NCBI GenBank assembly: GCA_000827205.1
Contig: KN832573.1
Span: 157,610 to 221,609, forward strand
Length of the DNA: 64,000 nucleotides
Direction of reading: 5' to 3'
DNA from: Plicaturopsis crispa FD-325 SS-3
Taxonomy: Eukaryota > Basidiomycota > Agaricomycetes > Amylocorticiales > Amylocorticiaceae
Position 1 is the first letter of the stretch. Every line of letters begins with the position of its first letter. The translations under genes were made by a program, and so were the position numbers. This document shows positions 2,876 through 37,086 of the stretch, in pieces. Below the pieces are notes generated by a model, which saw only the letters and a list, made by a program, of their open reading frames with translations, was not told the origin of the DNA and ran no database searches.

Positions 2876-4850
2876 GGCGTTGAATAAGATCTGGGAAGGT
2901 GGAGGGGGCGGAGACGGGGGCTTCTTCGAGAATCATTGCGAGTAGTCGCTTTTGTAAACGATACGAGTGGTGTGCGGAGGGCTTTGCAATCGCCAGTCAG
3001 GGCATGGCCTAGCCACCGGCACTGCTCACTGTGATAGGATGTGAGTAACGCTTTGCAGGGGAAAATGGCCTCTGATGGCAGGCACACTCACAGGAATATG
3101 CGAATTGGGAATCGCCGCTGCCCATTCGGATACGATACAACGCTGTACTATCGGCGGGCATTAGATTCCGGATAACAAGACCTCGCGTTTGAGTACGTTC
3201 TGTGGCCTTGGACTCTGGAGCTTGACCTAGCTTGACGTAGAACCATGGACGCAGTACAGTTATTAGAAAGTTGTTCAGGGCAGTCGATGTCCATTCAAGT
3301 TGTGCAAGAGCGCCGTGTTAACTTCTCGACAATTTCGATGCCAGATTGCGACTTTGTGCAGAAGGAGTTCACGTAGTTCTCTTGTAAAATCGATGTGTCG
3401 GTCAGGTGTCGGTTCCTCGTATATCAAGTTGACGCTGGACGTTGAGTGAGATCAAGAACAGCGGCGCTGTGCGCGCTTGTTGTGCGCCTCGCCGGCCAGA
3501 CGCGACGGGATTCGGAACCCTGAGGCAGACCTTCTTGCTCTCAACGACCACGTCGGACGCGTCCTCGACGCGCCCATATCTGTTCACCATATGCGAGTGA
3601 TTGCTCGAAATCTTCAGCTGCCAGGAAATGTTGCTCGTATGACGCGGTACTCAGAACGCGACCCCGCTCCCCCAAACCTGTCCCCATGATCAGGCGCTCG
3701 GTCCAGCGCAGGTCCAGCGCTCCGAGCCTGCTACGGTCGCCTGACTGTACTTACCAGACGGAAATATCATAAGAGCGCTATGAACATGGTTCCGGGGTGT
3801 AATGCATGACGCTGGTGAGCAGTGAAATACTTGAAAGATGAGGCTCGTGTGGGGCACTAAGTTCTGGCCGGATGTTCTATACTTATAGACTTGGGCCTCG
3901 GAGGTGCCGTCATGACAAGGAACATTATGGAAGGAGAAATGAAAGCAATCAAGTCTATCTCCGCGCGCAAGACGGCGCATGACTTTGACCGCCACCGCGG
4001 TCCAGTGAAACTTTGCGAGGCGATAGCATAGCGAGCAAGCGCCCCCCATTTTGAAGGGATGCCATGCATCCGATGGGATTGCTCATATCTGGCTTCAGCA
4101 TACTGCAAGGCCTCCATGCCCACTCGAGCATGGTCCGGTGCCATCTCTGGATTTTTAACACAATAGACTACGCCCGTACTCAACGCTACGCCTTTTTGCT
4201 GTTCCGATGGTATTGACCAATTTCTTTCTCAAGTCCGTATACAACGCTCACGTCATTTCCCGCCGGATCAAGTCTCCGATTGCAAATCAATTGCACTTGA
4301 ACTGCATTGCTATTCCGGGTCTCATTGTGGGCCAAGGCAATTCAAACTCTACGCCGCCCTTCACATTCAAACGGATACGTACTTACATGGGCGCCCCGCC
4401 GCATTGCCCGAAGGTGAGCCACCCCGTATTAGCATATATCCTCAACTTTACGCGAATTTCAAGTGAACCACTTCCCAGCCGCCTTGAGCGCAGACGATAA
4501 GACACACCGAGGCGAGCAGTCGTCCCAGTTTGCAGTGTGGCGCCGTCCCAGGCGGAGCAAAGAATTTGAATTGAAACTCCGCGACTGTGCCCGATGGCCA
4601 GAAAGAGCAATTCACGTCGTGATAGTCGCCGGCGTAAGCAGCTTTATGCCAGACTTACCAAGTACTGACGCCCATACCCAGCCTCACGCCTCCTTCACCC
4701 CGCAGACCATTAAAAGCCTTCGCGAAGGTGCCCCATGGTTTCTTCGACCCCCGCCCATACCGCCGTCGACTGTAGGCGTGCTTTTAATCTTCCCCTACTC
4801 TCCCAGACCAATAATTCCCTACACGCTCTGCACGACCCTAGACGACCGCC
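2876..4850. other. Divergent intergenic region, P450 / ABC transporter
   Basis: About 2 kb separates two divergently transcribed starts, so both promoters must lie here. Pyrimidine-rich tracts occur just before the ABC start (about 4780-4850), as is usual for basidiomycete promoters. No reading frame resembles a known protein, and no transposon ends were recognised. Confidence 0.5.
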
Positions 4851-10760: not shown

Positions 10761-12257
10761 TGCTCTTGATGATTCTGTAATTTAGGCCTGCGTGAATGGA
10801 CTGCTATTGATTTCGCGTATAGATGATGATGATTGATGTATCATTTGGAAATATTGTAGTGATTCATAATTATTTATGTTCTGGGTTTGACCTTCGACTC
10901 CTCCGAGCTTGCAAATAGCAAGCCTGTCAGATGAAGATACAGCAAACGGCGCGCCAAGTGAGCTTCGCAAGGCATTGCATGCAAGGCCCCAATAATTTCC
11001 CATTCATGCACGGTAATGCACTGCGTATGCTCTCTCTACGACTATTGATCTGTACGGTGGGGCCCCGGGGGTCATTTCCAAATCCAAAATAGGCAGGCAT
11101 TGGCCGACTTCCTTTGTTTGTTTGGACATGAGTTCACAGCCAAACAACGCGAGCAACTCAGCCACTGACATCGCTAGACGCGGCGGCCGGCTGTCACTGT
11201 CACTGAGACTTTGTTGCCCTTTTTTCATGTTCTCGTGTTCTGCGTCGATTCCAGCTTTCCGTTCTCGATCCTATGCTCAATTCAATCCTGACGCTTCATA
11301 CCGGCGAGCCGCATTCAAGATGTCAGTTTGTGCTCGATTTTACGCTATCGTTTCATCCACCAGCGCCTGCGTCGAAAATAGGGAAAACCCAGCGCTCAGT
11401 ACGGTGATCGTGGCTCAGCCCTGTAGAATACACGCAGGCCATCTGTAGATCTCGCTCTACATTCTACGCTTCAGAGATGTATGACACTCAGTAAGCGGAC
11501 ATTGTACTGGTAGCGCCGACGCGTGCTATGGTAGTAACCACACATGACGAACCTTGAAAACTCACCAACTCTGCACACCTTTGGTGCTTGGTACCCGGGT
11601 CATCGATATCTGCCATCATCGCGCGGCATATTAGTGTCTCCAACCTCTCGATCCACACAGGGGCGCGAACAGCCTCGGTCCTCGAATGCACAGCGGCCGC
11701 AACACTGCGGCGACATGTCGCCAACAGTCTATCCAACCGTTTGTAATGTCAGCCGGTAAACTGGTGCGTATAATCGTACTCAATCCAAACTATATTTTTA
11801 CTGACTCTAAAATGCAGTTGACATATGTTTCGCGGAGGGCCGTCTTCGTCACAGCCTCGTTTACGGCGTACAAACATGAATTTTGAATGCGCTTTATGAC
11901 GTCTGAACGCTCCGGCCACAGAAAGCAGTGCCCATACCATCTTCTTTATGGGCGTCAAGGAGTCATTCCCTGCGAGCCACATTCCGACGCCGTGTCCAGG
12001 TCTGGCGTGCCTGTCCATCGCTTCCCGAAATCATAGAAACATAGCCACTTCATCTGTGCACTTCCCCGAGATGGTGGGCCGCAAACCATCACTACTCATC
12101 CATTTGTTAGTCTAGCCCCCTGCGCTCCCCCGTCATCTACGGCCTGTCCCAGCCCCGCACGGCATACCACCAGCCCTCGCACAATACAGCGCCCTATTAA
12201 ACCAGGCCCAATTGTGGTTCTCTTATTCATCCCACACTCACCCACTCCACCAGCAAG
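10761..12257. other. Intergenic region between ABC transporter and P450
   Basis: About 1.5 kb with no convincing exon. It holds the ABC 3' flank and the promoter of the downstream P450; a TATTAAA motif sits at 12195-12201. Nothing else was recognised. Confidence 0.5.
12195..12201 (+). promoter_or_regulatory. TATA-like element of the P450 at 12258
   Basis: TATTAAA lies about 57 bp before the ATG, with C/T-rich sequence following. Position and composition fit a basidiomycete core promoter; not proven. Confidence 0.4.
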
Positions 12258-14459
12258 ATGTCCTCGACCTCCGCCATCCTGCCCGCCTCGCTCGCAGCCC
12301 TCCCTGCGGGACATCTGCTCGTGCCTCTCGCGGCCTCGCTCCTAATTTATTCAGTGTACTATGTCTATAACATCGGTGCCCGGGCCAGGAACATGCCTCC
12401 GGGGCCGCCTACGGTGCCCATCATCGGCAACCTCAACGTCTTCCCGAAGAGCCATCTTCACATGAAGTTCACGGAGTGGTGTAAGTACCCATCCATTCAA
12501 TGTGGAAGGACTCAGCTCACTGGTTGTGTTTGCTGGAATGCAGCCAAAATCTACGGCGACGTGATCTCGCTCAAGGTCTTCAACAACACCGTCATCGTGC
12601 TCAACACGCCGACCGCTGTGAAGGAGCTCATCGACAAGCGCAGCATTGCCACCTCCAACCGCCCCAAGTCGATCCTCGCGGACATGATCACGCCACACAA
12701 CCTTAACATTGGTACCGGCCACTACGGTAAGTGGCCGCATCTGCCGAAATCGTCACTATCGGGCGCTGACATCATGACCTTTCAGCAAACGAGACATGGA
12801 AGGTCCTGCGCAAGGCGTCCACGCAGCTCCTCAGCAACGAGAACATCCGTTCCCTCCAGCCGTACCAGCATGCCGAGGCCACGCAGCTCATGTGGGACTT
12901 TTCGCGTGACCCCGAGGTACGTCCTATTTACCGCGTTCCTTCATTCACGCATGGAAAGACGTGCTGATGATATGGCGTTCCACAGAACTGGTATACGCAC
13001 ATTCAGCGCTTCACGACGTCGTTTGCGCTCGGCATCACATACGGCAAGCGCGCGCCCCGCGTCGAGTCCAAGGACGTCAAGGCGTTCCTGCATGTACAGC
13101 CGCAGTTTCTCCACGCGCTTGAGTTTGGCACCATGCCTCCCGTGAGCCTATCCGCTTACTCTATTTGTGATGTCCTTGCTAACGAAGACGGGTATTGCAG
13201 GTCGACCTGTTCCCGATCCTGACGTACGTGCCTGAGCGCTTTGCGCACTGGAAGCGCGTCGTGAAGACCGTCAAGGCGCTGCACGAGGAGATGTACGAGG
13301 ACCTTTTGAGCACCGTCGAGCGGCGCCTCGAGAAGGGCCAGGCTGCCAACGTGTTCATGGAAGACGCCGTTATCAAGGCACAGGAGTGGGGTCTCACTCG
13401 CCGCGAGCTTCTCACGTACGCTGCTCTTCGTTACCCCGGTTGCCCTGCGACTAACCGACGTACAGGAACTTGGGTGGTGTTCTTCTCGAGGGCTCTGACA
13501 CTTCTTCGGCTACTCTCCAGGGTGTGGTGCTCGCGCTCGTCGCGTTCCCCGAGGCGCAGAAGAAGTGCCGCGAGGAGATCGACCGTGTCGTCGGCAGTGA
13601 CCGCGCCCCGACACACGACGACTTCCCCAACCTGCCTTACACCGCCGCATTCATCGAAGAGGTGCGTATCTCTTTCCCCGTCACCTTGCCTATTTTGGCT
13701 GCATGCTAACCTCGTCCGCAGGTCAACCGCTTCCGCCCCGTCAGCCCCCTCGGGCTCCCGCACGAGATGGTCAAGGACGAGATCGTCGACGGTGTTTTGT
13801 ACCCCAAGGATGCAGTGCTCTTCATCAACACCTGTGCGTCCCTTCCTTTACCTTACGCGAGCTGCTGAGCTGAGTATATGTGCAGGGGCGATCTTCCACG
13901 ATGAGCGCTACTACGACCGTCCCCACGAGTTCATCCCGGAGCGTTTCCTCAAGCACCCCCTCGGCATCAAGGACGAGAGCACGGACGACCCCGCGCGTCG
14001 CCAGAACATGCTATTCGGTGGCGGGCGCCGCGTGTGCCCCGGCATCGCGTTTGCTAAGACTTCTCTCGTACGTCTCCGCCTCCTCTGTGATGTGTGGTCG
14101 AAGGTACTGATGTTGTTGGTGTGCTCAGGAAATCAACGTGCCCAACTTCATCTGGGCGTTCGAGTTCTCGCCCGAGATCGACGCGGCGACTGGCAAGCCG
14201 ATCCCTCCCAACATCAACAACTTTGCCTCCGTACGTCTTTCCGCATATGTTGTGTGACTATTTGCTAACGTGTGCGCGTATCCAGGGCATCACGGCGACC
14301 CCTGGACGGTTCAAGTGCACGATCAAGCCGCGCTCGCAGAACCACCTCGACGTGATCGAGCGCCAGTTCGCCAAGGCGGCTGAGTTCCTCACTCCGTACG
14401 AGCTCGAGCTGTCCCCGGAGGACAGGGCGTACAACGCCAAGTACCGCGACTCCTACTAA
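12258..14459 (+). CDS. Cytochrome P450 monooxygenase (paralog of the 0.8 kb P450)
   Basis: Predicted ER-anchored haem monooxygenase. It starts MSSTSAILPASLAALPAGHL, followed by a hydrophobic anchor and the hinge MPPGPPTVPIIGN. The I-helix reads GVLLEGSDTSSATLQ (about 13475-13520). The K-helix region includes AAFIEEVNRFRPV across an intron, and the haem loop FGGGRRVCPGIAFAKTSL is at about 14010-14065. It ends SPEDRAYNAKYRDSY at the TAA closing at 14459. The first exon joins TGG-T|CC to give EWSKIYGD. It shares long identical blocks with the P450 at 784-2875 (TAVKE, IDKR, TSNRP, ADMITP, NLNIGTG), so the two are recent paralogs flanking the ABC pump. Substrate unknown. No defect seen. Confidence 0.92.
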
Positions 14460-20300: not shown

Positions 20301-21470
20301 AAGTTAGCCATCATCCGCCCATCTCTGCGTGCTGGGCGGACTCTCCGTTGTGGTACTACTATGGAGAAGTCGATGCACAGAATAAGGTACGTCATATTTG
20401 GCGCGAGGATGTTTCGTGGTCTGACCTCCACTTCCCTAGTTCATGGGCAAAAGCTTCGAGATTGCGCCGAAAGGCATAGCTCACTGCGAGCTGCTTCTTC
20501 CCGAAGAGAGTGCTGCACACGATGGGTACCCTAAGGCTACTGGTAAACTGCATGAAGGCAAAGTTGTTGAGCATTATAGCTGGAAGAAGGTCACGACGAA
20601 CGTTTCTGGCTTCATTCTTGGCTCCCCAACTATTGACCACTACGGAGACATGGTGGTGCGTGTTCTTTTCACACTAACTTGCTGATGTTACCTCATGCCA
20701 CGCACTCCGTTAGATCACGAACCACCGCACCAACGACACCTGTGTGCTGACTTTCAAACCTCGCGGGTGGCGCGGCAGAGACGCGTACGAAATCTCCGGG
20801 TTCGTCAAGGATTCTTCAGGCCGCGTCGCCTACGAGATCGCAGGCCGGTGGAACAGCCAACTGGTCGCCCGAGAGGCTGGTGCTGGCAGCGGATTCTTGC
20901 ACCCCGACGTCGCGGTGAGCGGGCCCAGCTCGCCCTCCGCCACACGCGAATACATTCTTCTGTGGCGCAATTCCGAGAAGCCGCCTGCCCCGTTCAACCT
21001 TACACCGTTTGCTGTCACTTTGAACGACTGTCCGACCGATACCCTGAAACCCTATGTGTGCCCGACCGATTGTCGGCTGCGCCCTGATCAGAGGGCGTTC
21101 GAGCTTGGAAAATACGAACTTGCGAACGAGTTGAAGAATGCCCAGGAGGAGAAACAGCGGGTATGTCTTGTCGCCCTCTCACCATATCGTATACGCTAAC
21201 ATACACACTTCTCCGTAGGCGACAAGACGTGCCCGTGAGGAGGGCAGGCTGCCAGACCACCGGCCACGCTGGTTCTCCGCCGTCACAGACGGAGACACCG
21301 GCGAAAGGCTGTGGGCCCCAGCGCGCACGGAGAAGGGTGACCTCGAGTATTGGGCGGAGCGGACGAGGGTGTTCGTCGAAGGGGGCGTGGAGAAGAGTGA
21401 ATGGAAGGAGGTGGATCCGATATTTGTGGAGGAACCGGGTGAGCTCAAGGCTCTCATAGGAAGCTCATAG
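17302..21470 (+). CDS. Oxysterol-binding protein-related (ankyrin-PH-FFAT-ORD, Osh1/2-like)
   Basis: Predicted lipid-transfer protein at ER contact sites, exchanging sterol and PI4P. The layout is as in yeast Osh1/Osh2. N-terminal ankyrin repeats include DTTPLHLAASLGRVDVVNLL and SSLLHEAAKRKDLRLIELAV. A PH domain runs from LKGYLNKYVNVARGHQTRWF to the HHVEAHRWTQAIG helix. A long Ser/Asp-rich linker follows. A canonical FFAT motif EFFDAIE (19602-19622), preceded by DTDDED, should bind VAP proteins on the ER. The C-terminal ORD starts with GKDLTKISFPVFFN across an intron and carries the family signature EQVSHHPPISA (about 20300), whose His pair binds PI4P. The protein ends ELKALIGSS at the TAG closing at 21470. 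More than ten short introns; roughly 1,150 aa. Likely a housekeeping gene, not part of the flanking metabolic clusters. Confidence 0.92.
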
Positions 21471-22056: not shown

Positions 22057-24171
22057 TCAGTAGTGGCTGCACACGCACTGGAAGAAGCCTGAGGTGAATT
22101 CGGGAGTGAAGGACACCTCTTTGCCTTGCGCGTCGACCTCTTTGCGGATGTCGAATGTGGCAAGGACGGAGGTCAACGCAAGCCAAACCAAGGCATCCGC
22201 GAAATGCCTCCCCGGGCAGATGCTGGACACGTGGTCAAGCTTTAGCAAATCTATAGGATGGAGGCTTGATTAGGGAAACTTACCGTCTTCCAAAGCCGAA
22301 GGTACCGCCTAACCTGGGGTCAGGAAGGTCCGGGTTGTCGAGATATCTCGAGGGTCTGAATTTGTCGGCGTCGGGCCCGTAGATCTTCTCGTCGTGCAGG
22401 ATTGCCCTATTGCACATCATTTTAGTCATGCAAAGTGGGCAAAGTTATGATATCAAGCTATACCATGCGTTTCCAAATACGATTGTGCCCTTGGGAATGA
22501 AAGACCCCTTGTAAATATCGTCCTCCATCAACCTGTGAGGAACACCTATGGAGAGGGATTCTATGAGACCGCGCATGCAGAAAGTTGAGCGTCAAACCTA
22601 CCCAAAGGCAATGCCGGGTTCCACCGATAGAGCTCCTTCAAGAGTGCTTCCACATAGGGCAGCGACTCGCGGTCCTCGAAATCAGGAAGCCGTTTGTCAC
22701 CAACGACTGCGCTCAGCTCCTTCTGCGCCTCCTTCTGCGCTTCGGGGTAGAGAACCATGGCAAGAATGAAAGACTCCAACGTCGTGAGCATCTATAGCGG
22801 GTTAGATACGGTCATGATCCGACAAGGAAAGAAACATACAGTGTCCGTGCCAGCTTAGATTCGTTCGACGAAAACATCAGTAACGAGAAGTAAGACCAAT
22901 GGACTGAACTCACCTCCGTATGTCGTTGCCGCAGCACCTTGGTAATCGTACTCAGTGACACTAGAGTCGCCCTGAGACTCCTCAATCATCGTAGTGGCAA
23001 ACGAGGTTACTGCACGTCCGTTTTTCTGAGATATGGTCAGGATCCGGTGGACTTCAAAGCATAACGGATGCAAATGACTCACTATCATGTCTTTCACGAC
23101 ATCCCAGGGCTCTTCTCTCAGCCCGTCAAAGGTTTTGCGCCATTCCCTAGCCTGTTTCTTGAAGGACGTGAACGGTACCCATTCAGGAAGATATCTCACT
23201 ATCTTGATGTCAGTTTCACCCATAGATGCCATACACTATTGAACGTACAGATGGGAATGACATCGACGTAGAAAGCTCCAGGCTTCGATATTTCGGCGAA
23301 CGCATTGATACCATCGTCTGCAAGCTTGAGGAACGGATCATCCCTGTTCTTGACAGCGAAACTACATGCAAGCTTCGGGTCAGCAACTGAAACCTGGAGC
23401 GATCATGCCATGTGTACTGACCCGTATGTCATCTCGACGAGAACTGATCCTCCAAGACTGTCGAAAGAGCGTGAACAGAAGGCCAGTGAATATAACCATT
23501 GCTACATACTATCTCAGATGCTCAACATAGTCGGCGGGATCCTTGAGAAGATTGAGTAGAAGTTCGCTGGTAGCCTTCGCATGCAATGGCCAGAACGCAG
23601 ACGCTGCGCCGGGGTGGAACCGTCCGTGGAAGATCTTGCGGTGCTTGCGCCAGGTCGAACCATACTCCAAGATGACAAGCGGCCAGTCTGCGAGACCCAT
23701 CCTAAATGAGAATGTCAGCGAAGAGCTACAAGATGCAGAAAAGTTAACATACATCTCCATCATTGGGGTAATAACACGATCGCTGTAAATCGATGACCTC
23801 TTCTCGAATATCTCGTGCGCCGCCTCAGCTGTGTTCACGTATACCAGCGGTTGCCCGATGACATTGAGACCGATGATATCACCTTTGCCAAAGTGTTAGA
23901 AAAGAGGCGGACAAGGTCAGAGGCAGAGATAAGCCTTACCGTATGTCTTGCTCCACTCCATGTAAGTTTCACATTCTCTTTCGAAGACAATGTCGCGGAT
24001 GTTTCCTACTAGAGGAAGAGGTTTAGGTCCCGGAGCGAAGGGGAGACCCTGAGCGTTCCTCGAGCGTCCAAGTATAACATTGCGAATCCACCACAGCACC
24101 GGAAACCCGACCAGTAATGCAGTCAGCGGTGTGCGCAGCGAGGGAGGTATACCTCCGATGATCGATGACAT
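22057..24171 (-). CDS. Cytochrome P450 monooxygenase beside the terpene cyclase
   Basis: Predicted ER-bound monooxygenase from a family different from the two P450s near 1 and 13 kb. From the ATG at 24171 it begins MSSIIGGIPPSLRTPLTALL, with a hydrophobic anchor and the hinge FAPGPKPLPLVGNI. The I-helix is spliced through two introns to give AATTYGAGTDTMLTTLESF (about 22930-22780), with the AGTDT oxygen-activation motif intact. The haem loop, also split by an intron, joins to FGFGRRICPGRHFAD, with its Cys near 22220. The C-terminus is FFQCVCSHY, stop at 22057-22059. It is divergently transcribed from the terpene cyclase across a 1.3 kb shared promoter region, the usual layout for a terpene-tailoring P450. 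That it oxidises the cyclase product is inference from position. Confidence 0.88.
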
Positions 24172-25482
24172 GGTGGAGGATGCGGAGGGAGGGAGGGCGA
24201 TATCTCGGGAAGCCAGTATGTTGGCGTAATATAGTATCCCCTCATAAGGGAGGCCGCTGAAGAGGCGCCCGCCACCGCCGTTGTAGACTCAATATACAAA
24301 ACGGGTGACTGGGGCTCGCCACATGCCTTTTTCAGAGTAATCAGCGCTGGTCCGAGGCTGTTCCTATCAAAATGCGCAATGAGCATGCCAATTTAGACGT
24401 CCGGTAAGTCTGGAGGACGAGCTGCGGCAATATGTATGCTCAACGGCGTGCCAGTGTCCGCTGGCCATTCGACAGTCAACCCTTTCTTTTGCACCAGGTT
24501 CTAAGATATTCTTCGATAAGAGTCGGAAACAGTGTACGCGTCCATTTTCCGTGGAGATCCAAGCGTCAAACCGGGGCATGTAAAGCACATACAAGTGAGC
24601 ATACAGCGAGTCAAGGGAAGCTTGGTATCCAACATAAACTCTGAACTAGAAGAGCTTCCTAATCGGAGTATTTGTCAGCATTTGGGAGGTTCTCGGGCGG
24701 TGTTGCTTGCAACGTTTTCATCTCCACCTTTATGCGAGTCGTGCCTTCATGTTTCAATCCGTTACATATATCACTGCGCCGCTCGGTTTGATTTCATCCC
24801 CGTTGACTGATTGTCCAATCTTGCGCGGATCTTTTCCTGTGACTCAAGTTGCGGACCAGTGCCAGTGCACGATTGAGATTTGGTACTAGTCGTCAGCGGC
24901 ACCGACATCTCCCCGTCTTAGCCACATACCAGTGAGCGATATCAGTTTCAATCTCCAGCATTCATTATACCAGCATAGTGACGGAGACCTTACTAGATTT
25001 CTGTACATTACACCGTCCAATGGAGGACAATACGCTCTCTAGAGGTGTTGAACAAAGCGCAAGCATCGCCTCTATCGGTGTTCATCCTGATGTCGTAAAT
25101 GCGGCGAATGAACACCAGTCCCCGTAACCCACTCATTCCAAGTCGTTTGATATATGAATGGTAGATCTTCCTTTTCTGTAACCTAGCACCGCTCTCCAGC
25201 GCAGCCCATTCGGCGGGTCTGCCGCCGTGCACCCCTTGATATCTAACGCATACTGACTCTACAGTTGACGAATGTCGGCCGCGAGGCAGAAAGGGTCTAC
25301 ACAGGCACGAACAGCTCCGGCTATGGGCGCCAGTCTACGGCCACCAGGCAGTCCGGCTTGCATACTTAAACAGAGCGCTCTGTATATATACAGCAAGCCC
25401 CCCTCCCCGACCAATGTTTACCTCTATCATTTCCTATCCTTTTAACGTATTCACTTCACTCGCCTCGTCCTTCTTATACGGA
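24172..25482. other. Shared promoter region, P450 / terpene cyclase
   Basis: 1.3 kb between divergent starts with no exon seen. Close to the cyclase it holds two overlapping 12-bp palindromes (25371-25392), listed separately. On the P450 side there are CCCCT motifs near 24236, which resemble fungal stress-response elements; functional meaning is unknown. Confidence 0.5.
25371..25392 (+). promoter_or_regulatory. Overlapping palindromes incl. TATA element, terpene cyclase promoter
   Basis: CAGAGCGCTCTG (25371-25382) and TGTATATATACA (25381-25392) are both perfect 12-bp palindromes and share two bases. The second contains TATATATA, placed about 93 bp before the cyclase ATG, so it probably includes the TATA box. 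The adjoining GC-centred palindrome could bind a dimeric regulator. A C-rich tract follows directly. Confidence 0.55.
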
Positions 25483-26664
25483 ATGGCGCCTTCTACAAAC
25501 GCTGATGAGTACGATAGCATCTCGTATCGCCAGGCGAAGCTAGCTCCCGTACGTTTTCTCTCTTGAATTGTCGAATGAATCACACTAACATAATCGTTAG
25601 TCTTTACCCGCCAGGCTAGATGGCACTCGGGATGTTATTGTCTCCTTCCTCGAGCGATGCAGCATCCCGTATCCTCACGATCCGTATGACTACGAATTCG
25701 ATGCGGCGACTCGCGCCGACGGTCTTCGCCGTGGATACTTGATGGAGGGTCCCAAGTCTCTTGGGCCGTTCGTTCCTGGTGCTGTCGCAATGGCTACAAC
25801 GGCGTACGCCCACCTGCCGGACAAGGAGGGCCAGATTCTCATGTGTCTATACACCACTTTCCTTATCTACCTCGACGACGTGTTCAATGAGGACATCGAC
25901 ACCGTGAGGGAGTTCAACGAGCGCTTCATCCACCGGGAGCCGCAAGGCGACGAGGTCCTTGATAACTTCGCCGATCTCTTACTGCAGATCCCGAAGTACT
26001 TCGTGAGTCTAGCTATCTTCTCTGATTTTTTCAGGATTTTGACCGTAATGGAAGGGGCGGGTTGTTGCAAACATCATGATTACGAGCACGCTGAATTTGG
26101 TCACTGCATTGCTATTGGAGTACGAGACGCAAGGAATGGCTGTAAGTATTTTTTTGCGAAGATTACCACTTGGCGATACTAATGTATCTTTCAGCTCGGA
26201 TCTGGTGCGCAAGGCTACCCAACTTTCTCCCGCGTCATGTCGGGTGCTTCGGAAACATATGCCCTATGGATGTTCCCTCCTGAGCTTCCTCTGCGGTCAT
26301 ACATCCAAGCACTGCCGGAACTGATGATTTTCATCAACAACGGAAAGTACGTCTGAAGTGTCCCAGTTACTCTCGACCAAGAAACTGATCAAATTGCATC
26401 CACAGCGACATACTCTCCTTCTACAAGGAGGAGCTTGCAGGGGAGGTCGTCAACCGCGTGTCGTTCATTGCCGATAGCCGCGACATCTCGAAGAACGAGG
26501 CCCTGCGTCTGCTCGAGGACGAGGCTGTTGCCGCGCATGACCGCGTAGTCCAGATCCTGGCGCCGCACAAAGGTGCATCGGAGGCGTTCCAGCATTTCAA
26601 GCACGGATACGTTGGCTTCCACGCGTTGGCGAAAAGATATAAGTTGGACGAGCTCAACCTCTAA
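25483..26664 (+). CDS. Terpene cyclase, trichodiene-synthase-like (class I sesquiterpene synthase)
   Basis: Predicted Mg-dependent cyclisation of a prenyl diphosphate, probably farnesyl diphosphate. Five exons (25483-25548, 25601-26002, 26055-26141, 26195-26346, 26406-26664) give 321 aa. The Asp-rich metal motif is LDDVFNED at about residues 113-120. The NSE/DTE metal motif is NDILSFYKEE at 236-245, completed across the last intron and matching N-D-x-x-S-x-x-K-E. The C-terminal KRY near residue 311 matches the basic pair that holds diphosphate in this family. The acceptor of intron 2 was set at 26054 because the nearer one (after TTTCAG) puts a stop in frame; the chosen join gives YFGRVVANIMITSTLNLVTA, fitting the family. 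It is all-alpha, soluble, with no signal peptide. The product cannot be predicted. It is the likely core gene of a local terpenoid pathway. Confidence 0.88.
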
Positions 26665-27204
26665 ATATTTATCTTCGGTCGGGGTGCACTTATTATATCG
26701 TTTACCAAACGCTGTCGCATAGATTAATTATGGTTTGGAGAGACGTGGCTTTTCTAGTCCTGGTAGACACAGTGTATGTTCAACTTCTATTTCTTATGGA
26801 CAAGTTATATACAGACGCACAGCGACAACCTTTTTTGCATTACAAATATCATCCTCCATACGTGGTGTCCACAATCCTGATTTCCTTCTACTCATCCAAC
26901 TGTATCTCGCTGCCGCTGCTTGGGCGTGCGTGGTTCTCTGATATGCGAGTTCTTGACCCCTAATACAGTAGCCTGTGCTCGGAACGATTGTGTCGAATTC
27001 ACTGCTTCGTGTGTTGCGAACTTGCAAACGATGTGAAGTTTGAGTCGTCCTCAGGATTCAGCGACGAGATACTACATGGGCACTAAGTAAGTAGGGTGTC
27101 TGGGGTGTAGGATATCTAGGTTCGGGGTCCGTCAGGCACTAACATGCATGTACATTGGACAAACATACAAGTCAAATGTCCCTCATCTAATTCCCTTCCC
27201 CTCG
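26665..27204. other. Intergenic region downstream of the terpene cyclase
   Basis: 540 bp of A/T-richer sequence with no credible exon. It ends where the SDR relic begins. Confidence 0.45.
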
Positions 27205-27500
27205 ATATTCCCTTCACACCCTCCTCGATTCCAATCCACCCCTCACGTCCCAGCTCCTTCAGTATTGCGGTGCTTCTCGAACTGTCGATGCGACTCAGGT
27301 TAAGCGCAGTCTTCCAGGCAAAATAAAATGCACGGGCAAATCAGTGCGGTCGGGACGGAGCTTCCGCACCATGCTCAGCAGTTGGTCTCATGAGAACGGC
27401 TCCGCGGCCGCCCAGAGACGATAACCAAGCGCATCGGTCGACGGTCTCGCAGACAAATCGCACGCAGCCACCAGATACCGTCCGGGAGGCGTATGTACGA
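27205..27500 (-). pseudogene. Decayed 3' fragment of an extended SDR reductase gene
   Basis: On the minus strand this stretch reads, in broken frames, YRLWAAAEPFS, then MVRKLRPDRTDLP, then NLSRIDSSRSTAILKELGRE and GWIGIEEGVKG. These match in order the C-terminal third of the SDR genes at 27700-28903 and 53941-55120. The frames carry stop codons and a shift between blocks, and no NAD-binding N-terminal part was found upstream. The wording (WAAAEPF, RPDRTDLP, STAILKE) is closer to the distant copy at 54.8-55.1 kb than to the adjacent intact gene. It is therefore a third, truncated family member left by duplication or rearrangement beside the cyclase. Confidence 0.75.
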
Positions 27501-27699
27501 GGTCTCGCGTCATGAGATTTCTCCTAGATGTGGCGCTAGATCCGGGACCCTCTGAGTCTTGAGCAGTACAGCATCCCACCGTTTGAACTGTGTTTCTGTC
27601 AAATCATCAACGCTCTCAACACTTCGGAAAGGAGCAGCCAAAAATGCATCCCTAATCAACATACAAGATCAATAAGTACACCTCCCCACACCAGCTCAC

Positions 27700-28903
27700 C
27701 TACTGCCCCTCGATATTCGCCTCCAAACTCTCGTCCAGCCCGACCCACCCATCGCGCCCCATCTCCTTCAGCAGGGCCGTGCTCCTCGAGTTATCCACGC
27801 GGCTTAGATTCGGGAGTGTCTCCCACTCGAAGCGCTCGGGCAGGTCCGTCGCGCGCGCGGGCCGCAGCTTGCGCACGATGCCTAGGATCTGGCTGAAGGT
27901 GAAAGGCGCGGCGGCGGCGTAGAGCCGGTACCCCGGCGCGCTGCACGACGGCAGCGTGAGCGCCGCGACGTGCAGACGCGCCGTGTCGCGTACGTCGACG
28001 AACCACTCTGTAGGACATGAGTCACGCGTCAGCCAGGCCGCTGAGGAGACTATGCACGATAGGACGAAGAACGCACGGTTGGGGAACCCGGCGAACTGGT
28101 CGCCCTTTCCGGAGAGGATGGTGAGCGGGAACAGTGCGGTGCTCTGCAGCAGCGCGGGGCCCAGCGCAGGCCCAAAGTTCGTGTCCGGCAGCACCGTATT
28201 GAGCACGAACCCAGGCTACAATCACGCACGCGCACCTTCCTCAGTCTCCCTTAGCACCTGTAGCGTGGCACTGGGGACGCACCTTCTCCTCCTCAACGAA
28301 TTTCCACGCGGCCTTCTCGCCCTCGGTCTTGCTGACCGCGTAGACGTGGTATCCGCGATGCGGGTCAGACTCCGCGGAGGCCGCGCTGACGTCGTTCCAG
28401 CTGTGCTCATCGCGGGTGTATGCGGTGCCAGGGGTGGGCCAGCCGGCGGCGACCGTGGAGGAGGTCAGAACGAAGCGCTTCACGGAGGGCGTGGCGGCGG
28501 CGGCGCGCAGGACGGCGAGGGTGCCCCGGACCACGGGCCCGACGACCTCATCCATGTTCTGAGACATGCTGACGTCGGACGCGACGTGCGCGATTCCGGA
28601 CACGCCTGGACAGGTGCATCAGGTAAGTTGCCCCGTGTGAGGGGGGAATAGAGAGTATAACGAACCTTTGATCGCTTCGTCGAGTGCCCCCTCGACAGTT
28701 ACATCGGGAATTTCTACGACCTCGAGGCGCCCCTCCCCAAACTCGCGAGTGAATTTCTCGCGCAAGAAGGTTGCCTTTGCCGCCGAGCGTGTCGTCCCGC
28801 GTACAGTGTATCCTGCTTGGAGGAGCTGATGCGCTACATGGGAGCCGATGTAGCCTGTAAAGCCGGTAACGAGAACAGTCGAGCCCCCTGGTATTGCGGA
28901 CAT
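27700..28903 (-). CDS. Extended SDR: NAD(P)-dependent reductase/epimerase family
   Basis: Predicted NADPH-dependent carbonyl (aldehyde or ketone) reductase of the Gre2/dihydroflavonol-reductase-like branch. From the ATG at 28903 it begins MSAIPGGSTVLVTGFTGYIG, a TGxxGxxG Rossmann loop. The catalytic Ser/Thr lies in RFVLTSSTVAAG and the Tyr-Lys pair in YAVSKTEGEKAAW. It ends LDESLEANIEGQ, stop at 27700. Four coding exons; one junction joins FPN to QWFVDVRDTARLH. An upstream GTG-initiated extension to 28951 is possible but unlikely, as the ATG fits family alignments. A near twin lies at 53941-55120 and a broken copy at 27205-27500. Its place beside the cyclase and P450 suggests reduction of an oxidised terpenoid; that is inference. 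Confidence 0.9.
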
Positions 28904-29525: not shown

Positions 29526-29858
29526 TTACTGATACATGTCGGAGTGGTACTCGTTGCTTTCCACCCCGTCGCGGCCCTGCGCCTCCACCCGGACGACCAG
29601 TTTCCAGGGTATCATGACCTGCCCGACATACCGTCCGTTCGGGTTCTCCTCAGGACCCAGCCTGAACTCCTCTGCATTGATCAAGAGGATGTTGAGCGGC
29701 TGATCGGTGCCGACAAAGGTGCCAATGAAGATGCGACCGTCCTTGACGGTGATGCGCAGCGTCTGTCGCAGGAGTGCCCTGAGGTATTGGATGGAGGCGG
29801 GGGCTCGCGAGGAGTCTGAGATCGGCGGCGACGGAGGTGGCAGCGGAGGCGACGACAT
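29526..29858 (-). CDS. N-alpha-acetyltransferase 38, NatC auxiliary subunit (LSm domain)
   Basis: Predicted small subunit of the NatC complex, which acetylates protein N-termini co-translationally. It is intronless, 110 aa. After a proline-rich start (MSSPPLPPPSPPISDSSRAP) comes an LSm fold: Sm1 covers LRQTLRITVKDGRIFIGTF with VGTDQPLNILL, and Sm2 covers GQVMIPWKLVVRVE, where the usual nucleic-acid-binding RG is changed as in Naa38/LSMD1. The ATG at 29858 is chosen; an upstream in-frame GTG would add an implausible hydrophobic leader. It ends EYHSDMYQ. A housekeeping gene, apparently unrelated to the neighbouring metabolic genes. Confidence 0.85.
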   Translation of the reverse strand: MSSPPLPPPSPPISDSSRAPASIQYLRALLRQTLRITVKDGRIFIGTFVGTDQPLNILLINAEEFRLGPEENPNGRYVGQVMIPWKLVVRVEAQGRDGVESNEYHSDMYQ

Positions 29859-30097
29859 GACCACCAGTAGCAGCACGACTCGGAAAGTGAAGGAAAAGTG
29901 GAGGAAAAGACAAATGTCATCAGAGGGCGTCCTCGCTATGGTTCCGTATTTCCCACGATAATTTCCGACACTTTGCCTCGAGGCTCGCACGTCGGTAAGT
30001 CGAAAATCCTACCAGACTCTGGTGTTCAAACGTTCAAGATTTATGTGTGTGTTCTGTCAGCCTGACTGCGGAATACTCATATTATTATACAGCGTCG

Positions 30098-30440: not shown

Positions 30441-33400
30441 CTATACGTCCTGAGGCCTCAAAGAATTCGTCCTCGACCCCATCTCGACCCCAGCGCCCTC
30501 GTGCCGCGGAGTGCGCAGCCCAACGCCGCGTATATGATACTGCTCCCCCACGAGCTCCTTCACCGCAACCATCAGCCTGTCGAGGCGCGACATGATCCCG
30601 AACGCCGTCGACACGCCGACGCAAAACACCCTGTATTAGAAATCCGTCAACCCGTCAGCTCGAACGCCAATCTCCATGGCAATGCGGAGGCACGTACATG
30701 TACTGCTCGTTCTCGAGCGTGCTCATCGTCATCGTGCGCGGGAGGCCGTAGTCGTCTTCGGACTCCTGCTCGATGACGTCTAGCCCCTGGTGGCGGATCA
30801 TGAAACGGTCCACCAGGGGGCACGGCGTGATCTGCGGCAGGGGCGTGCCCGTGCGCAGAGACGTCGAGATCATGCCTGCGACACACAGTATCAGTTTCAC
30901 GACGTGGTACCAAAAAATGAAGACGTCGCGCACTGATGACGGCGAGCACGTCGCCCTGGAAATCCGAGTCCATGAAGCGCGTACGCCGCATAAAGGCTTG
31001 TGTCCACGCGGGGTTCAAGTGCTCGACGACAGACATTAGATGCGACAGGGAATATGCGATCTGGCTATCAACGTCACGGTATATCCTTATCAGTATCAGG
31101 ATGAAAACCAACTCGGACAACTTACAGTTGTATTTCCAGGATTTTGTGGTACCTATCCGCAGGCCATCTACCTCGTAACGAAAACTGTTTTCAAAGACTC
31201 AGTTAGCGAACAACGGCAGTACGGAGTCAGGCCAATGAAACCGACCTCATATATAACATTCGCCTTCAGCGTTAGTGACCGCTTCAGTTTACTTCGGATC
31301 GCGATCAGACTCTGTACGATTTCGGTGTTGTCTTGCTTCCTCGACGAATTCGCAAAAGACAATATCGAGCAATAGATATTCCCAACTTCCGTGCACACTG
31401 TCGATAGGGACGTCCGCTGATACCGGCGGATCGTGGTTGAGGGAGGGAGGAATGAGAATATGCTGCGACACAGATATGATGAGCGATGAACTCGAAAGCC
31501 TTGTAGGAATGTACAGATGTACTTACAATGCCGCCGTAACACCCGCCGTGACGAGGACAAAGCGTCTCTGTGAACACGTTTAGAAAGACAGCGTTTTTCG
31601 CCTAAACATTCGACTCACCCAAGCGACAGAGAACCCTGATCCCGGCGAGCTAGGAAGGAATATATGTTGGTCCTGATACGAATACCCCACAACCTGTCGC
31701 ACCAAGCTTAAGCAAAGCGACTACAATGCAAACACAAAACACTGACCAGTATCGAAGTGACGAAGAAAACGAGATTGGTCATGGGCGGCCCCGGCCAGTA
31801 CAGCCGTGCGTAGAAGAAGAACGGGAAGCAGACACCATACACGGCCGCTATCCCGTACGGACTCCCGCGGCCATTGCCTGTCGAGATGTACCTAGGGAAT
31901 TGATTTAGTCGATAGCCAGGGTATCATGCAGTAAAGAAACGGACCAAAGGGTCATGCCAACAAGTCCTCCCAAAGACGTACTTATTATTCGAGATACTAG
32001 CCCGAACGTGGTGTCGCCACGGAACCGAGCGATTGTCAATTGGCCCATGAACCTGTCGAGATTGCGATCAGCCTAGTGTTGAGGCAAAGGAGAGAAAAGT
32101 CTCACGTCGCCCAAACAAATTTATTGTCTGTAAAAATGCACGTCAGTATATTCATACACTACGCACAATGGAATAGTAAAACGACTTACTGTAAGCAAAC
32201 GGTGCAGAAGAGCGAATGAGCGAGGGTAGGGAGAGCAAAACTGCACGAATGTCAACGCCGTAAGTCCAAGTCGACAATTGAGTCATGACAACGGGACTCA
32301 CTAGATAACACTCCTGCTTTTATAGCAAAGAGAGCGTTGCCGCTGCCGAGACCCTTAGTAGCATTATAAATGAAGTTCATGACCGCCTCGAATGCGTTAT
32401 TTGGAGGTAACGCATCTGGGTCCCGCCGCCGGGGCATCCCAAGGTCGTCCACCCACCCAGGTTCCATACCAGGGATGATTTCTGTGTCACTCGCGCTCAG
32501 AACCACACAAGCATTTCAAGAGTTCGCATGGATAGCGTACCGGGATTTTCCTCGTCGTCGTGCTCCAGATTATCCGTCGCATCCCACGTGCTCCACGAAA
32601 ATATCTTGCCTACACCATCGACAGGCGTCCAGATCCTGTTCCGTTTCCTCTCCTTCTCCAAGCGAATGATCTCCGATAGCTGCGAGGCAAAAACCGTCAA
32701 TTGCTGCTTCGCCGTCGCACGATAAAAACTCACGGTATCGATAACACGAAGCCCAAACGACATGAGATGGTACTGGTACACGTAGCAGTGGAAAAGATAG
32801 CGATGGGGAGGTGCTGTTTCGCCCTCCGCAGACAGCGACGCGTGCTTGGGATCGAAAACAGATCGGTAGGGATCTAGCACCAACAGCCTGAGAGCAAAAG
32901 GGTAAACCAAAACTGCACCTAATGATATAATAAGTGTCTACGCACCGTTTATCGCTCCTAAATGTTTCAAGGACAGTAAGCATCTCGGCCCGGAGATCTT
33001 CATACTTCGTAATCCGGGCCTGCGTCGCCCTCTCCCGCTCCTTCCCCTTCCAAAACTTCAGCCGCCCGTCCCTTACATGCACCAGCCACTCCTGTATGCT
33101 CTCCAGCGCACTCCCACAATGCCCCAGCAGCTCGTCGCACGACTCCTGCAGCAGCGCCGTCGCGCGCGCGGTGAAGAGCACCGAGTCCTCGCCCATGCGG
33201 TGGTCCGCCTCGAACTGCAGGTACCGCTGCGACTCGAACACGCCCACCGGCTGCTCGCGCGACATCGCCAGGTGCAGCAAAGACGTGTGTAGCATGTGGT
33301 GGTGCGCGTGCGGGCTCTTCGCGTGTGCATGCCCGTTGTGGTGCGGCGGGAAGAACCCCCCAAAGTGCGAATGCGGGGAGCCGAGGTGGGAGCGCGGGCG

Positions 33401-35114
33401 CGAGCGGCTGCGCGTGGGCGTGTCGAGCCCGTGCACGTGCATCGAGCGGCGGTGCGTTGCGCTCGCGGAGTTGGGGGCGGACTCGCGCGTGCTGACGTAC
33501 GACGCGCGCGGGGAGGCGAGCATCGAGGGCCGCCCGGCGTCCTTCTCCCCGCGGGCGGGCGAGTGAGGGCGGGAGGGGCGGGGCGTGCCGGGCTGCGAGG
33601 TCATAGGAGTGCCGGGCCGCGACGGCGCGGGCGTGATGGGGAAGCGCTCGCGCGTGGGGTCGATGAGCGTGAAGTAGATCGTCATGCCGTTCGCGCGCAC
33701 CGCGAGGCGGCGGAGCATGTTGTGGATGTGCGCAAAGTCCGTGGGCGCGAAGCGGCTATAGATGATGTCGGTGCGGAGGAGGCGCGCGGAGGCGGCGAGG
33801 GGGACGAGGGCGCTTTCGGACGCGTTGACTGAGGCGAGGATCGCGGCAGGGTTGAATGCCTCGTCCTGGGTGTCGGTTTTGAGGATTTTGCGGTGGTGGC
33901 CGAGGGAGGTTACGAGTGGGGTTAGGACGGCTTGACAGCGCGTTGTGAACTGCGCGGAGACGGTAGACGGGAACACCAGAACGGAGCAGATGATTGCCAC
34001 GGCAGAATGCATGGCCAGTGGAACGATAATGACTTGACCAAGCTACGAGCTGTCAGGCAACAATGCTTGGCTTCTTCACAGAAACTCACTTTGTAGTATG
34101 GGTAAGGGAAAAAGACCCCAGTTGTTAGAGATATATCTGCGAGGAGAGGTTAGCGAAGGATCAGGAGAGAAACAGTGCAACACACCTACGGCGATGCATC
34201 CAAATATGCACGCAAAAGTGTACGGGCCTGGCCCTTGCCTAGCTTTCACATAGAGGAAGAAGGCACTACCAAAGAATATAAACACCGCCATAATGACAGT
34301 GGGCTATGGAGAAAATTGTTCATCAATACTAGTGATAAGAATATGGGAGTGAACGAACCGCGAGCTGTATATAGTCTCCTGAAATCGCGTCGATATAGGT
34401 AACAGACGTATCGCGATTCGTACGCGCTAGATCCGCCAATTTCATGGCTAAACACGACCAGCTTTGTATTCGTGTTAGTGAGGTTGAGTGCGAGGCATCA
34501 AAGCACTTACGCCCATGCCAGAGCATTGAACGAGATAATTAAGGTCTCGCGTTCCATTACGGCTACAAAGGGGTCCGAGGGCGGTGAGAGAAACGAGGCT
34601 TCATTGAAAGTATAAGCAAGTGCCTTGTCAATAAACTTTCGTAGGATACTACGCACCAATCAGTATAAGAAAGCTAGCCTGATTGCGAGAGCTGTTTAGA
34701 TACATGACGTAATAAAGGACGTTTTGACATGCTCACCTGGCCCATGGCAGATTCGACAGAGGGAATGACAAAAAGTACCAAAGATATCCATGCTGCGATG
34801 GCACATCGGATAGCGACCTTTATCTTTGACCAAGTCCAGTTTGCAGGAATCCAAGCCAACTGCTGCGGTAGCGTGAACGACGATTTCTTGGGCGCGGTCG
34901 TCGTCGAACTCGCATCATCATTCTCCTTCCCGCCGCTGTCGCGCTCTTTGATATCATGGTAGGATCCTGAACCTGGTTGGTCACCATTCTCTGGAATTTC
35001 TAGCCGGACCTCGCGTTCTCGGAGACGAGGAGTCTTTGGCGGATCCGGGGCTACCTCGCCGTTCGTTGGGGGTGTCGTGAGTGCATTAGAGTCGTTCAGC
35101 GTTGCGTTCGGCAT
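30441..35114 (-). CDS. ArAE_2/DUF2421 polytopic membrane protein (putative aromatic-acid exporter type)
   Basis: A large multi-exon membrane protein with the arrangement of fungal ArAE_2_N plus DUF2421 proteins (sometimes called brefeldin A-sensitivity related). From the ATG at 35114 it starts MPNATLNDSNALTTPPTNGE with a polar, phospho-site-rich tail. The first membrane block follows (WSKIKVAIRCAIAAWISLVL; then MAVFIFFGSAFFLYVKA; VIIVPLAMHSAVAIICSVLV). A very long soluble insert at 33950-32950 holds Pro/Arg/Ser-rich and His-rich runs (HSHFGGFFPPHHNGHAHAKS). A second hydrophobic block and a C-terminal soluble region (EDDYGLPRTMTMSTLENEQY, then GIMSRLDRLMVAVKELVGEQ) lead to the stop at 30441. 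Over a dozen short introns; well above 1,000 aa. An upstream TTG-start extension exists but the ATG is preferred. Transport substrate unknown. Confidence 0.82.
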
Positions 35115-35493
35115 GAAAAAAGAGAGTACAGGTGAGAAACCAGGGCAGAGCAAGGTCGCATAGAAGGCAGAGGAGCAGAAATTTCGGAGAGTATTTTTGG
35201 TTCGGGGAGAGGTGGAGTGTCATGGAGTCTATTTTGGGACAGGGGCCTCTTATCATGGCACGTGGCAAGTCGCGTGGCCGCCGTATCGCTCGAATCAGAA
35301 ATATCAAACGTCTAAACGCCTAAAAATCGGGCTTGCGCAATTAATATTGCAAATGTATCAACTTTCCGGAGCAAACTGCGCACGAGTGCATTAAAATTGA
35401 CGGCGAGCGCTTGCGAATTATTCATTGCATTTGGTCTTTTCTTCACGACTACCGTACACACCCTTTTAGATTCCGCCAAGGCAACGCTAAAGC
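35115..35493. other. Intergenic region between two minus-strand genes
   Basis: 380 bp containing the promoter of the membrane-protein gene and the 3' flank of the MDR gene. No other feature seen. Confidence 0.45.
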
Positions 35494-37086
35494 TCAGTTC
35501 TTTGAAACCTTGATCACAACCTTTCCAACGTGTGCCTGCGATTCCAGATACTCGTACGCCTTTAGCGCATCCTCGAACGCGAACACCTTGTCCACCACGG
35601 GCCGGATGTTGTTCGCCGCTATCAGGCGGTTCATGTCCTCGAATCTTTCGCAGAACCACCTCTGTTAGACAGCGCCGAGGGCCCACGAGCAGGTGGCAGA
35701 GTACGTACTGAGCAACAGAGCCGATTGAGATGCCGCGCAGAGAAAATGCTTTCATAATCGCGTAGAGCGGGATGTTGATGTCGCTCTTCCCCTGCAGTCG
35801 CGCGGCGCATCAGTACGCTGTCTTACACGGGGAGCTCAGAGTTGACGCGCACCTCTGCGACGAAGCCGATGGCGTGGATGAACCCACCAATGCGGACGGA
35901 CCCGATGGTCTTTTCGATCGTCCCCGGGCCGCCAACCTCGATGATGTGGTCGACGCCGCGTCCGTTGGTCTTGCAAAAGAACAGTGTCAATCGAACACTG
36001 CAATCGGAAAAGGAGAGCAGTTTCGTATACGCACAATCTTCAGCACCTCCTTGTCCCAGTCCGGCGTCTTCTTGTAGTTGATCAGGTGGTGCGCGCCGAG
36101 TGACTTTGCGATCTTCAGCTTCTCGTCAGAGGACGAGGTCGCGATGACCGTCGCGCCAGACGCTGCCGCAAACTGCAGGGCGAAGCTAGCAAGGGTTGTC
36201 GTGCGAAGTGCGTGTCAGTGAGATCATTACCACAAAGAGCCGAGCGGTACTGACATGGATACACCACCCGTTCCCTGGACGAGAACGGTGTCTCCTCCTT
36301 TGAGGGGAACCGGGCCCAGGAGCGCGTTGTATGCAGTCACCGCCGCACATCTACACAGGTTAGATCCTGGTCAACTATCATCAAATGCAAGCTATCCGAA
36401 ATGCAGTACGCACGGGAGTGTAGAAGCCTCCTCGTAAGACAGCTGATCCGGAATCTTCACAAGGGACTATAACACAACATATCAGCACACCTTACTCCAC
36501 AATTCTTATAGCCCGCACGCATACGCACATGCACAGGGAACGTCCTATACTCCGCCAACACGCCGTCCACCGGCGCGCCCAGCGCCGTTTTCTTGATCGC
36601 CTCCGTCGTGTCCCCGTGCACATGGTCTAGCGCAAAGTTCGCGCACACGCGGTCGCCGGTCGCCCATTTCCCCGCGGCGGCGAGGTCGGAGCCGAGCTCA
36701 ACGATCTCGCCTGCGGCGTCGGACGTCGGGATGACGTTGGTTTTCGCGCTGGAGGGAGAGGGGGTGAGTGGGGCGCGAGGGGGAGGGGGAGGAGGGGCGT
36801 ACGGCATGGGGTAGGTCCCTTTTGCTATGATGAGGTCGCGGTACTGTGGGACCGTTAGGACGCGTTGAGTGTGAGTCGGTTCAGGACATGCTCGTACGAC
36901 GTACGTTCAGGGACACGGCATGGATCTTTACCAAGACCTCATTTGCTTTCGGCTTTGGCATAGGCGCCTCGGAAAGGGTGAGGTTGTGGATTCCATCGAA
37001 CTAGATGTACGTTGAGACGCGATCCACGAGGGGTATATAGACCCACATACCTTGGGGAGGTGGTATTCGCGGGAGATTGCTGACAT
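35494..37086 (-). CDS. MDR-family NAD(P)H oxidoreductase (quinone-reductase/alcohol-dehydrogenase-like)
   Basis: Predicted soluble medium-chain reductase of about 350 aa. From the ATG at 37086 it begins [12 protein letters not shown], then (after an intron) [20 protein letters not shown]. At the usual catalytic zinc position it has NYRDLII, without the zinc-binding Cys, so it resembles zinc-independent quinone-oxidoreductase members. [14 protein letters not shown] is the conserved core and [10 protein letters not shown] the Rossmann loop. It ends [13 protein letters not shown], stop at 35494-35496. A C-rich 55-bp intron (about 36750-36804) removes a proline run, giving [18 protein letters not shown]. 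The last 25-30 codons are duplicated at 30098-30217. Substrate unknown; many fungal homologs lie in secondary-metabolite loci. Confidence 0.88.

What the first reader, a model, noticed from the sequence alone, without database searches (positions are those of the whole stretch)
22057..28903. Compact terpenoid locus: P450 / terpene cyclase / SDR
A class I cyclase with intact metal motifs (LDDVFNED, NDILSFYKEE) sits divergently from a P450 and next to an NADPH reductase, a minimal cyclise-oxidise-reduce set. The cyclase is trichodiene-synthase-like, a branch less well characterised in basidiomycetes than the protoilludene-type enzymes. Motifs are seen directly; the pathway is inference.
Basis: partly seen in the sequence, partly recalled or inferred. 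Interest (0 to 1): 0.7.

Follow-up and report, generated by a model that had tools for sequence, protein, structure and literature searches.

The report
Ordinary mushroom sesquiterpene synthase locus
A mushroom-type fungus carries an apparently intact sesquiterpene-making enzyme gene beside an oxidising enzyme gene and a common reductase gene; each is of a familiar kind, and nothing found here shows that the three form one pathway.

Summary
The three genes are really there at 22057-28903 and all three frames are intact after splicing. The cyclase is a TRI5-family (PF06330) class I sesquiterpene synthase with the FYK motif of 'clade IV', a known and widespread basidiomycete group. Its NSE motif is canonical; its Asp-rich motif is DDVFN, with N in the fifth position, a place where characterised relatives also vary. 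The genome search found 11 TRI5 genes at 8 places. Only this place has a detected P450 within 50 kb. Finding one within about 3.4 kb of at least one of 8 places has a chance of about 11% under random placement, so the linkage is suggestive, not significant. The SDR is an aldehyde-reductase-II-type enzyme from a dispersed family; no cyclase was found near its other full-length copies. A frameshifted SDR relic lies between cyclase and SDR, so the SDR's position is better explained by its own family's duplication. Best reading: a working clade IV cyclase, its product possibly oxidised by the divergent P450, with an incidental SDR. New member of a known kind; low interest.

The parts
22057..24171 (-). 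Cytochrome P450, 12 exons, 501 aa, AGTDT / ELYR / FGFGRRICPG motifs (motif meanings recalled)
   Evidence: Spliced by script and corrected by hand; PF00067 E 8.9e-69; closest paralog C11:1079045-1081157, about 52-85% identity by matched piece; closest PDB chains are generic (mammalian CYP2 family)
24172..25482 (.). 1.3 kb intergenic stretch between the divergent P450 and cyclase start codons; TATATATA about 100 bp before the cyclase ATG (seen by eye)
   Evidence: Sequence; one 22-nt imperfect direct repeat and one short palindrome; no open frame chosen there by the codon score
25483..26664 (+). TRI5-family (PF06330) sesquiterpene synthase, 5 exons, 321 aa
   Evidence: Spliced model; Pfam E 5.9e-19; PDB relatives longiborneol synthase CLM1 8h4p E 7.2e-22, SydA E 3.9e-21 to 8e-21, trichodiene synthase 1jfa E 1.3e-11; 10 paralog models 44-60% identical
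25874..25888 (+). Asp-rich motif DDVFN (first metal-binding motif; fifth position N)
   Evidence: Sequence; compare DDVFQ of LbSTS6 and DDAFQ of Cop6 in PMC10608071 Table 2
26407..26433 (+). NSE motif (N)DILSFYKEE; the N codon is split by the intron 26347-26405
   Evidence: FYK is the clade 4 signature in PMC10210940
27209..27480 (-). SDR pseudogene relic: only the C-terminal part is recognisable (query residues 244-330), in two frames with an in-frame stop
   Evidence: tblastn 58% identity and three-frame translation; blastn 76% to the SDR copy at C14:617k and 72% to that at C20:302k
27700..28903 (-). Extended SDR, aldehyde reductase II / dihydroflavonol-reductase-like, 4 exons, 335 aa, TGFTGYIG and YAVSK motifs (meanings recalled)
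   Evidence: closest PDB chain aldehyde reductase II 1ujm E 2e-70 (run with the 358 aa draft model that still held intron 28008-28076)
20714..21470 (+). Left flank: 3' part of an oxysterol-binding protein gene
   Evidence: PF01237 E 6.6e-38 for the open frame 20714-21196; the last exon by eye
29526..29858 (-). Right flank: LSM-domain protein gene (NatC/LSMD1-like is recalled; start codon by eye)
   Evidence: PF01423 E 1.5e-8 for the open frame 29529-30008

Best explanation
The locus holds a functional clade IV (TRI5-type) sesquiterpene synthase. It binds farnesyl diphosphate with Mg2+ through its Asp-rich and NSE motifs, probably isomerises it to nerolidyl diphosphate, and closes a ring at C1-C6 (or C1-C7) to give a cuprenene/barbatene/bisabolene/daucene-type hydrocarbon or a mixture. 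The divergent P450 may oxidise that product, or may be an unrelated neighbour. The SDR is an independent member of an expanded carbonyl-reductase family and most likely has no special link to the cyclase. Shown: gene structures, families, motifs, paralogy, the SDR relic, lack of repeated linkage. Inferred: activity, cyclisation type, any P450 step.
For: Intact 5-exon cyclase over the TRI5 cut-off, related to solved TRI5-type cyclases. In the alignment of 11 proteins NDxxSFYKEE and the C-terminal RY are kept in 11 of 11 and the sensor Arg in 9 of 11; the two exceptions, C13a and C13b1, are poor models there. FYK signature of clade 4. Characterised clade IV enzymes with Q, P or S in the fifth Asp-rich position have reported products. 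SDR: five other full-length family members (C20:302k, C14 twice, C4, window 53941-55117) plus two fragments; in blastn the duplicated stretch is the gene itself and not its flanks. P450 within 5 kb at 1 of 8 TRI5 places and at 1 of 14 terpene-synthase places.
Against: Per site, a P450 within 3.4 kb has a chance of only about 1.5%, so taken alone the P450 linkage at this locus is notable. The genes on both sides (OSBP, LSM) have no evident role in terpenoid metabolism, so the three enzyme genes do form an island. Two further P450s and a PDR-type ABC transporter lie within 25 kb to the left. No expression or product data.
Confidence: 0.62

Rival explanations
1. A true three-gene pathway: the cyclase makes a sesquiterpene, the P450 oxidises it to an alcohol and on to an aldehyde or ketone, and the NADPH-dependent SDR reduces a carbonyl to set the final alcohol.
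For: The three genes form an island between an OSBP gene and an LSM gene. P450 and cyclase are divergent and could share a promoter region. Cop6-cox1-cox2 is a known TRI5-type mini-cluster (PMC7396576 passages), and P450 or SDR genes flank STSs in Desarmillaria (PMC10146329 passages).
Against: The SDR belongs to a dispersed family; its four full-length copies outside the window have no relative of this cyclase within about 9-10 kb. An SDR relic lies between the genes. No other TRI5 place repeats the arrangement.
Confidence: 0.2
2. A two-gene unit: cyclase plus divergent P450 make an oxidised sesquiterpene, like a reduced Cop6-cox cluster. (This overlaps with the best explanation, which leaves the P450's role open.)
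For: Divergent arrangement, both genes intact; of 14 terpene-synthase places found it is the only one with a detected P450 within 5 kb.
Against: About 11% chance of at least one such pair among 8 TRI5 places (the P450 list is a lower bound, so the true chance is higher). The P450's closest paralog on C11 has no relative of this cyclase in the 20 kb read around it. The intergenic stretch is long (1.3 kb).
Confidence: 0.4
3. The cyclase gene is decaying or inactive (non-acidic fifth position in the Asp-rich motif, non-consensus acceptor).
For: DDVFN instead of DDxxD/E; AAG acceptor at intron 2.
Against: Full-length frame with the NSE, sensor Arg and RY residues kept; AAG acceptors recur in two paralog models at the same intron and in the P450; active relatives have Q, P or S in that position.
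Confidence: 0.1

Closest known systems
Clade IV / PF06330 basidiomycete sesquiterpene synthases (Cop6, Omp8-10, LbSTS6, PcSTS06, TvSTS14)
   Same: TRI5 domain, NDxxSFYKE motif, DDVF-type Asp-rich motif in Omp8, Omp9 and LbSTS6 (PMC10608071 Table 2)
   Different: Fifth position of the Asp-rich motif is N; product unknown; direct identity to these enzymes not measured because their sequences were not held
Cop6-cox1-cox2 lagopodin mini-cluster of Coprinopsis cinerea (PMC7396576 passages)
   Same: TRI5-type cyclase directly beside a P450 gene
   Different: One adjacent P450 here, not two flanking; an SDR is present here; no product or co-expression known
Trichodiene synthase (TRI5 proper, 1jfa)
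   Same: Family and motifs, phmmer E 1.3e-11
   Different: Weaker match than to longiborneol synthase CLM1 and SydA; nothing found here suggests trichodiene as product
Aldehyde reductase II (1ujm; Sporobolomyces salmonicolor as source is recalled)
   Same: Extended SDR, E 2e-70 in two stretches that cover most of the length
   Different: Substrate unknown; one of six full-length family members found in this genome

Membership tests
TRI5 / clade IV sesquiterpene synthase | PF06330 match above the curated cut-off | tested here: met
   68.6 bits against 25.2
TRI5 / clade IV sesquiterpene synthase | NSE motif NDxxSxxxE with the clade 4 FYK signature | tested here: met
   NDILSFYKE; signature from PMC10210940
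TRI5 / clade IV sesquiterpene synthase | Asp-rich motif D(D/E/N)xx(D/E) | tested here: inconclusive
   DDVFN: first two acids present, fifth is N; many PF06330 rows of PMC10608071 Table 2 also depart here
TRI5 / clade IV sesquiterpene synthase | C1-C6 type cyclisation of FPP/NPP | not testable with these tools
   Needs enzyme assay
Terpenoid biosynthetic gene cluster (cyclase plus tailoring genes acting together) | Physical linkage of cyclase and tailoring genes | tested here: met
   P450 and SDR adjacent
Terpenoid biosynthetic gene cluster (cyclase plus tailoring genes acting together) | Linkage repeated at paralogous loci in the same genome (supporting, not strictly defining) | tested here: not met
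   0 of 10 other TRI5 genes has a detected P450 within 50 kb (P450 list is a lower bound); tblastn of the window P450, SDR and 20 other window ORFs against the 97 kb read around them gave 0 hits
Terpenoid biosynthetic gene cluster (cyclase plus tailoring genes acting together) | Co-expression or conserved synteny across species | not testable with these tools
   No transcriptome and no other fungal genomes held
Aldehyde reductase II-type SDR | Near full-length similarity, Rossmann TGxxGxxG and YxxxK | tested here: met
   1ujm E 2e-70; TGFTGYIG and YAVSK
Cytochrome P450 | PF00067 match, heme Cys motif, ExxR | tested here: met
   E 8.9e-69; FGFGRRICPG, ELYR. CYP family not assigned; NCBIfam matches are all far below their cut-offs

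The most novel reading that the evidence does not exclude
A lineage-specific three-gene pathway in which a single P450 and an aldehyde-reductase-II-type SDR recruited from an expanding family make a new oxygenated clade IV sesquiterpenoid.
Probability: 0.18. Interest if true: 0.35.

Novelty: new member of a known kind. Interest (0 to 1): 0.15.

Why it matters
It adds one more clade IV sesquiterpene synthase, in a genome where 11 were found, to a group with comparatively few assigned products. It also shows that neighbouring oxidoreductases should not be read as a pathway before checking how common and how dispersed their families are in the same genome.

Tried and rejected
Mushroom linalool/nerolidol synthases as the closest functional relatives: dropped, because the passages seen describe DExxD/D(D/E)xxD and WxxxxxRY motifs and no link to TRI5 (PMC7890063 and PMC11740858, passages only). 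PMC12864622 (passages) was looked at for the same question; the terms trichodiene and TRI5 do not occur in it.

Segmental duplication of the whole locus: tblastn of the window P450, SDR and 20 other window ORFs against 97 kb around the 10 TRI5 paralogs gave 0 hits besides those of the cyclase itself; for five of the seven places this reads only about 3-6 kb on each side. Around the SDR copies and the C11 P450 (120 kb) only hits of the SDR family and of P450 ORFs to the C11 P450 appeared.

Bacterial-type promoter and terminator scan of the intergenic stretch: at shuffle level and made for bacteria, so ignored.

My first cyclase model started one base off and was discarded. My automatic P450 model missed the heme-motif exon and was corrected by hand. 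The first SDR model (358 aa) kept one intron; the 335 aa model replaces it. The first P450 distance count used a hand-thinned list of the 107 rows and was repeated with all 107, with nearly the same result. PDB and NCBIfam searches with the P450 gave only generic or sub-threshold matches.

A paper search for 'DDVFN' listed three papers, none on terpenes by its title (listing only). Species identity was not determined. Structure prediction was not run: the tool asks for letter-for-letter translations, and these proteins are spliced. Paralog models C13a and C13b1 are poor in the middle (skipped or misread exons), so their identities to the window enzyme are rough.
Full report
What is there. The window lies in a genome of 33.2 Mb in 49 contigs, at contig 20, 157610-221609; gene structure and families are those of a basidiomycete, but the species was not determined. 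Between an oxysterol-binding protein gene on the left and an LSM-domain protein gene on the right lie three intact genes: a P450 (minus, 24171-22057, 501 aa), a TRI5-family cyclase (plus, 25483-26664, 321 aa) and an extended SDR (minus, 28903-27700, 335 aa).

The cyclase. It scores 68.6 bits against PF06330 (cut-off 25.2) and stays just below the cut-off of PF19086 (21.8 against 23.7). Its nearest solved relatives by sequence are longiborneol synthase CLM1, SydA and then trichodiene synthase. The NSE motif NDILSFYKE carries the FYK signature that PMC10210940 reports in 92% of its clade 4 sequences (passages). The Asp-rich motif reads DDVFN. In PMC10608071 (part 1 of Results and the tables read) Cop6 (DDAFQ), LbSTS6 (DDVFQ), Omp10 (DDIFP) and PoSTS16 (DDISS) also lack an acid in the fifth position and have reported products, so a departure there is normal in the clade.

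Paralogs. A genome search with PF06330 gave 11 rows, one per gene, at 8 places. The same genome shows 6 PF19086 places (10 rows). Both searches are lower bounds by the tool's own statement. Ten spliced paralog models align with the window enzyme at 44-60% identity, two of them (C13a, C13b1) with doubtful middle exons. In a tree of these 11 proteins the window enzyme is sister to the pair C13b2/C13b3 (ultrafast bootstrap 99, SH-aLRT 98). The AAG acceptor at intron 2 recurs in the C2a and C5 models.

Is the P450 linkage more than chance? A search with PF00067 gave 107 rows, which merge to 77 places; this is a lower bound, because 92 of 178 candidates were scored. Of 8 TRI5 places, 1 (this one) has a P450 row within 50 kb; the next is 56.9 kb, on C1. 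Of 14 terpene-synthase places, 1 has a P450 row within 5 kb; the next closest is 11.6 kb, on C6. Under uniform placement 1.5% of the genome lies within 3.4 kb of a P450 row, which gives 11% for at least one of 8 places. The linkage is therefore suggestive for this locus by itself and unremarkable for the family as a whole. The P450's closest relative, on C11, has no relative of this cyclase in the 20 kb read around it, and no terpene synthase row lies on C11.

The SDR. Its closest solved relative is aldehyde reductase II, 1ujm. The genome holds five other full-length members, at C20:302192-303385, C14:616650-617841, C4:1211246-1212508, C14:1002692-1003873 and inside this window at 53941-55117, plus an N-terminal fragment at C20:142314 and the relic described next. 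The four copies outside the window, and the fragment, have no relative of this cyclase or P450 in the 20 kb stretch read around each; the copy inside the window lies 27 kb from the cyclase. In blastn the similarity stops at the gene's own ends. Between cyclase and SDR lies a C-terminal SDR relic in two frames with a stop. The SDR's place is best explained by local and dispersed duplication of its own family.

Mechanism. The best-supported chain is: FPP plus Mg2+ binds at the two motifs (shown as sequence only), ionisation and C1-C6 or C1-C7 closure as in clade IV (inferred from family; PMC10608071 gives 1,6 and PMC10210940 gives 1,7 for its tested enzyme), possibly P450 oxidation (inferred, about 0.4), and SDR reduction (inferred, about 0.2).

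Comparison with what is known. The Cop6-cox1-cox2 mini-cluster makes lagopodin B from alpha-cuprenene (PMC7396576, passages). P450 or SDR genes flanking STSs were reported in Desarmillaria tabescens, where 6 of 12 STSs are clade IV (PMC10146329, passages). PMC11122449 (abstract and Results read) extracted 517 TRI5-type synthases, 305 of them from basidiomycetes, and required neighbouring P450 or redox genes when choosing 23 for expression; 10 of the 23 were active. The finding is therefore a new member of a known kind. I did not search for this very gene in print beyond the motif search.

Limits. No other fungal genomes, transcriptomes or STS sequence sets were held, so synteny, co-expression and identity to characterised clade IV enzymes were not tested. 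The chance estimate assumes uniform gene placement, and distances are from row starts to approximate cyclase centres. Meanings of P450 and SDR motifs and the NatC/LSMD1 label are recalled, not from a call.

Noticed in passing
window 1199-2932 (-) and 12201-14265 (+): Two more P450 genes, on either side of a PDR-type ABC transporter gene (about 6973-9424 +), within 25 kb of the finding; they are distant from the P450 of the finding (24-48% identity by matched piece).
   Followed up: partly
window 53941-55117 (+): A second full-length SDR of the same family (60-69% identity by matched piece, introns included), with an aldehyde dehydrogenase exon at 57935-58258.
   Followed up: partly
window 27209-27480 (-): Frameshifted SDR C-terminal relic between the cyclase and the SDR.
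   Followed up: yes
L014, L015 (C13:155000-173999): Three TRI5-type cyclase genes close together, two of them very similar to each other (C13b2 and C13b3); another pair is on C1.
   Followed up: partly
window 46627-50716 (-): Two long adjacent open frames (491 and 866 aa) without any Pfam match at E 0.001.
   Followed up: no
window 30658-36906 (-): A BRE4/ArAE-type membrane transporter gene followed by a zinc alcohol dehydrogenase gene to the right of the LSM gene.
   Followed up: no
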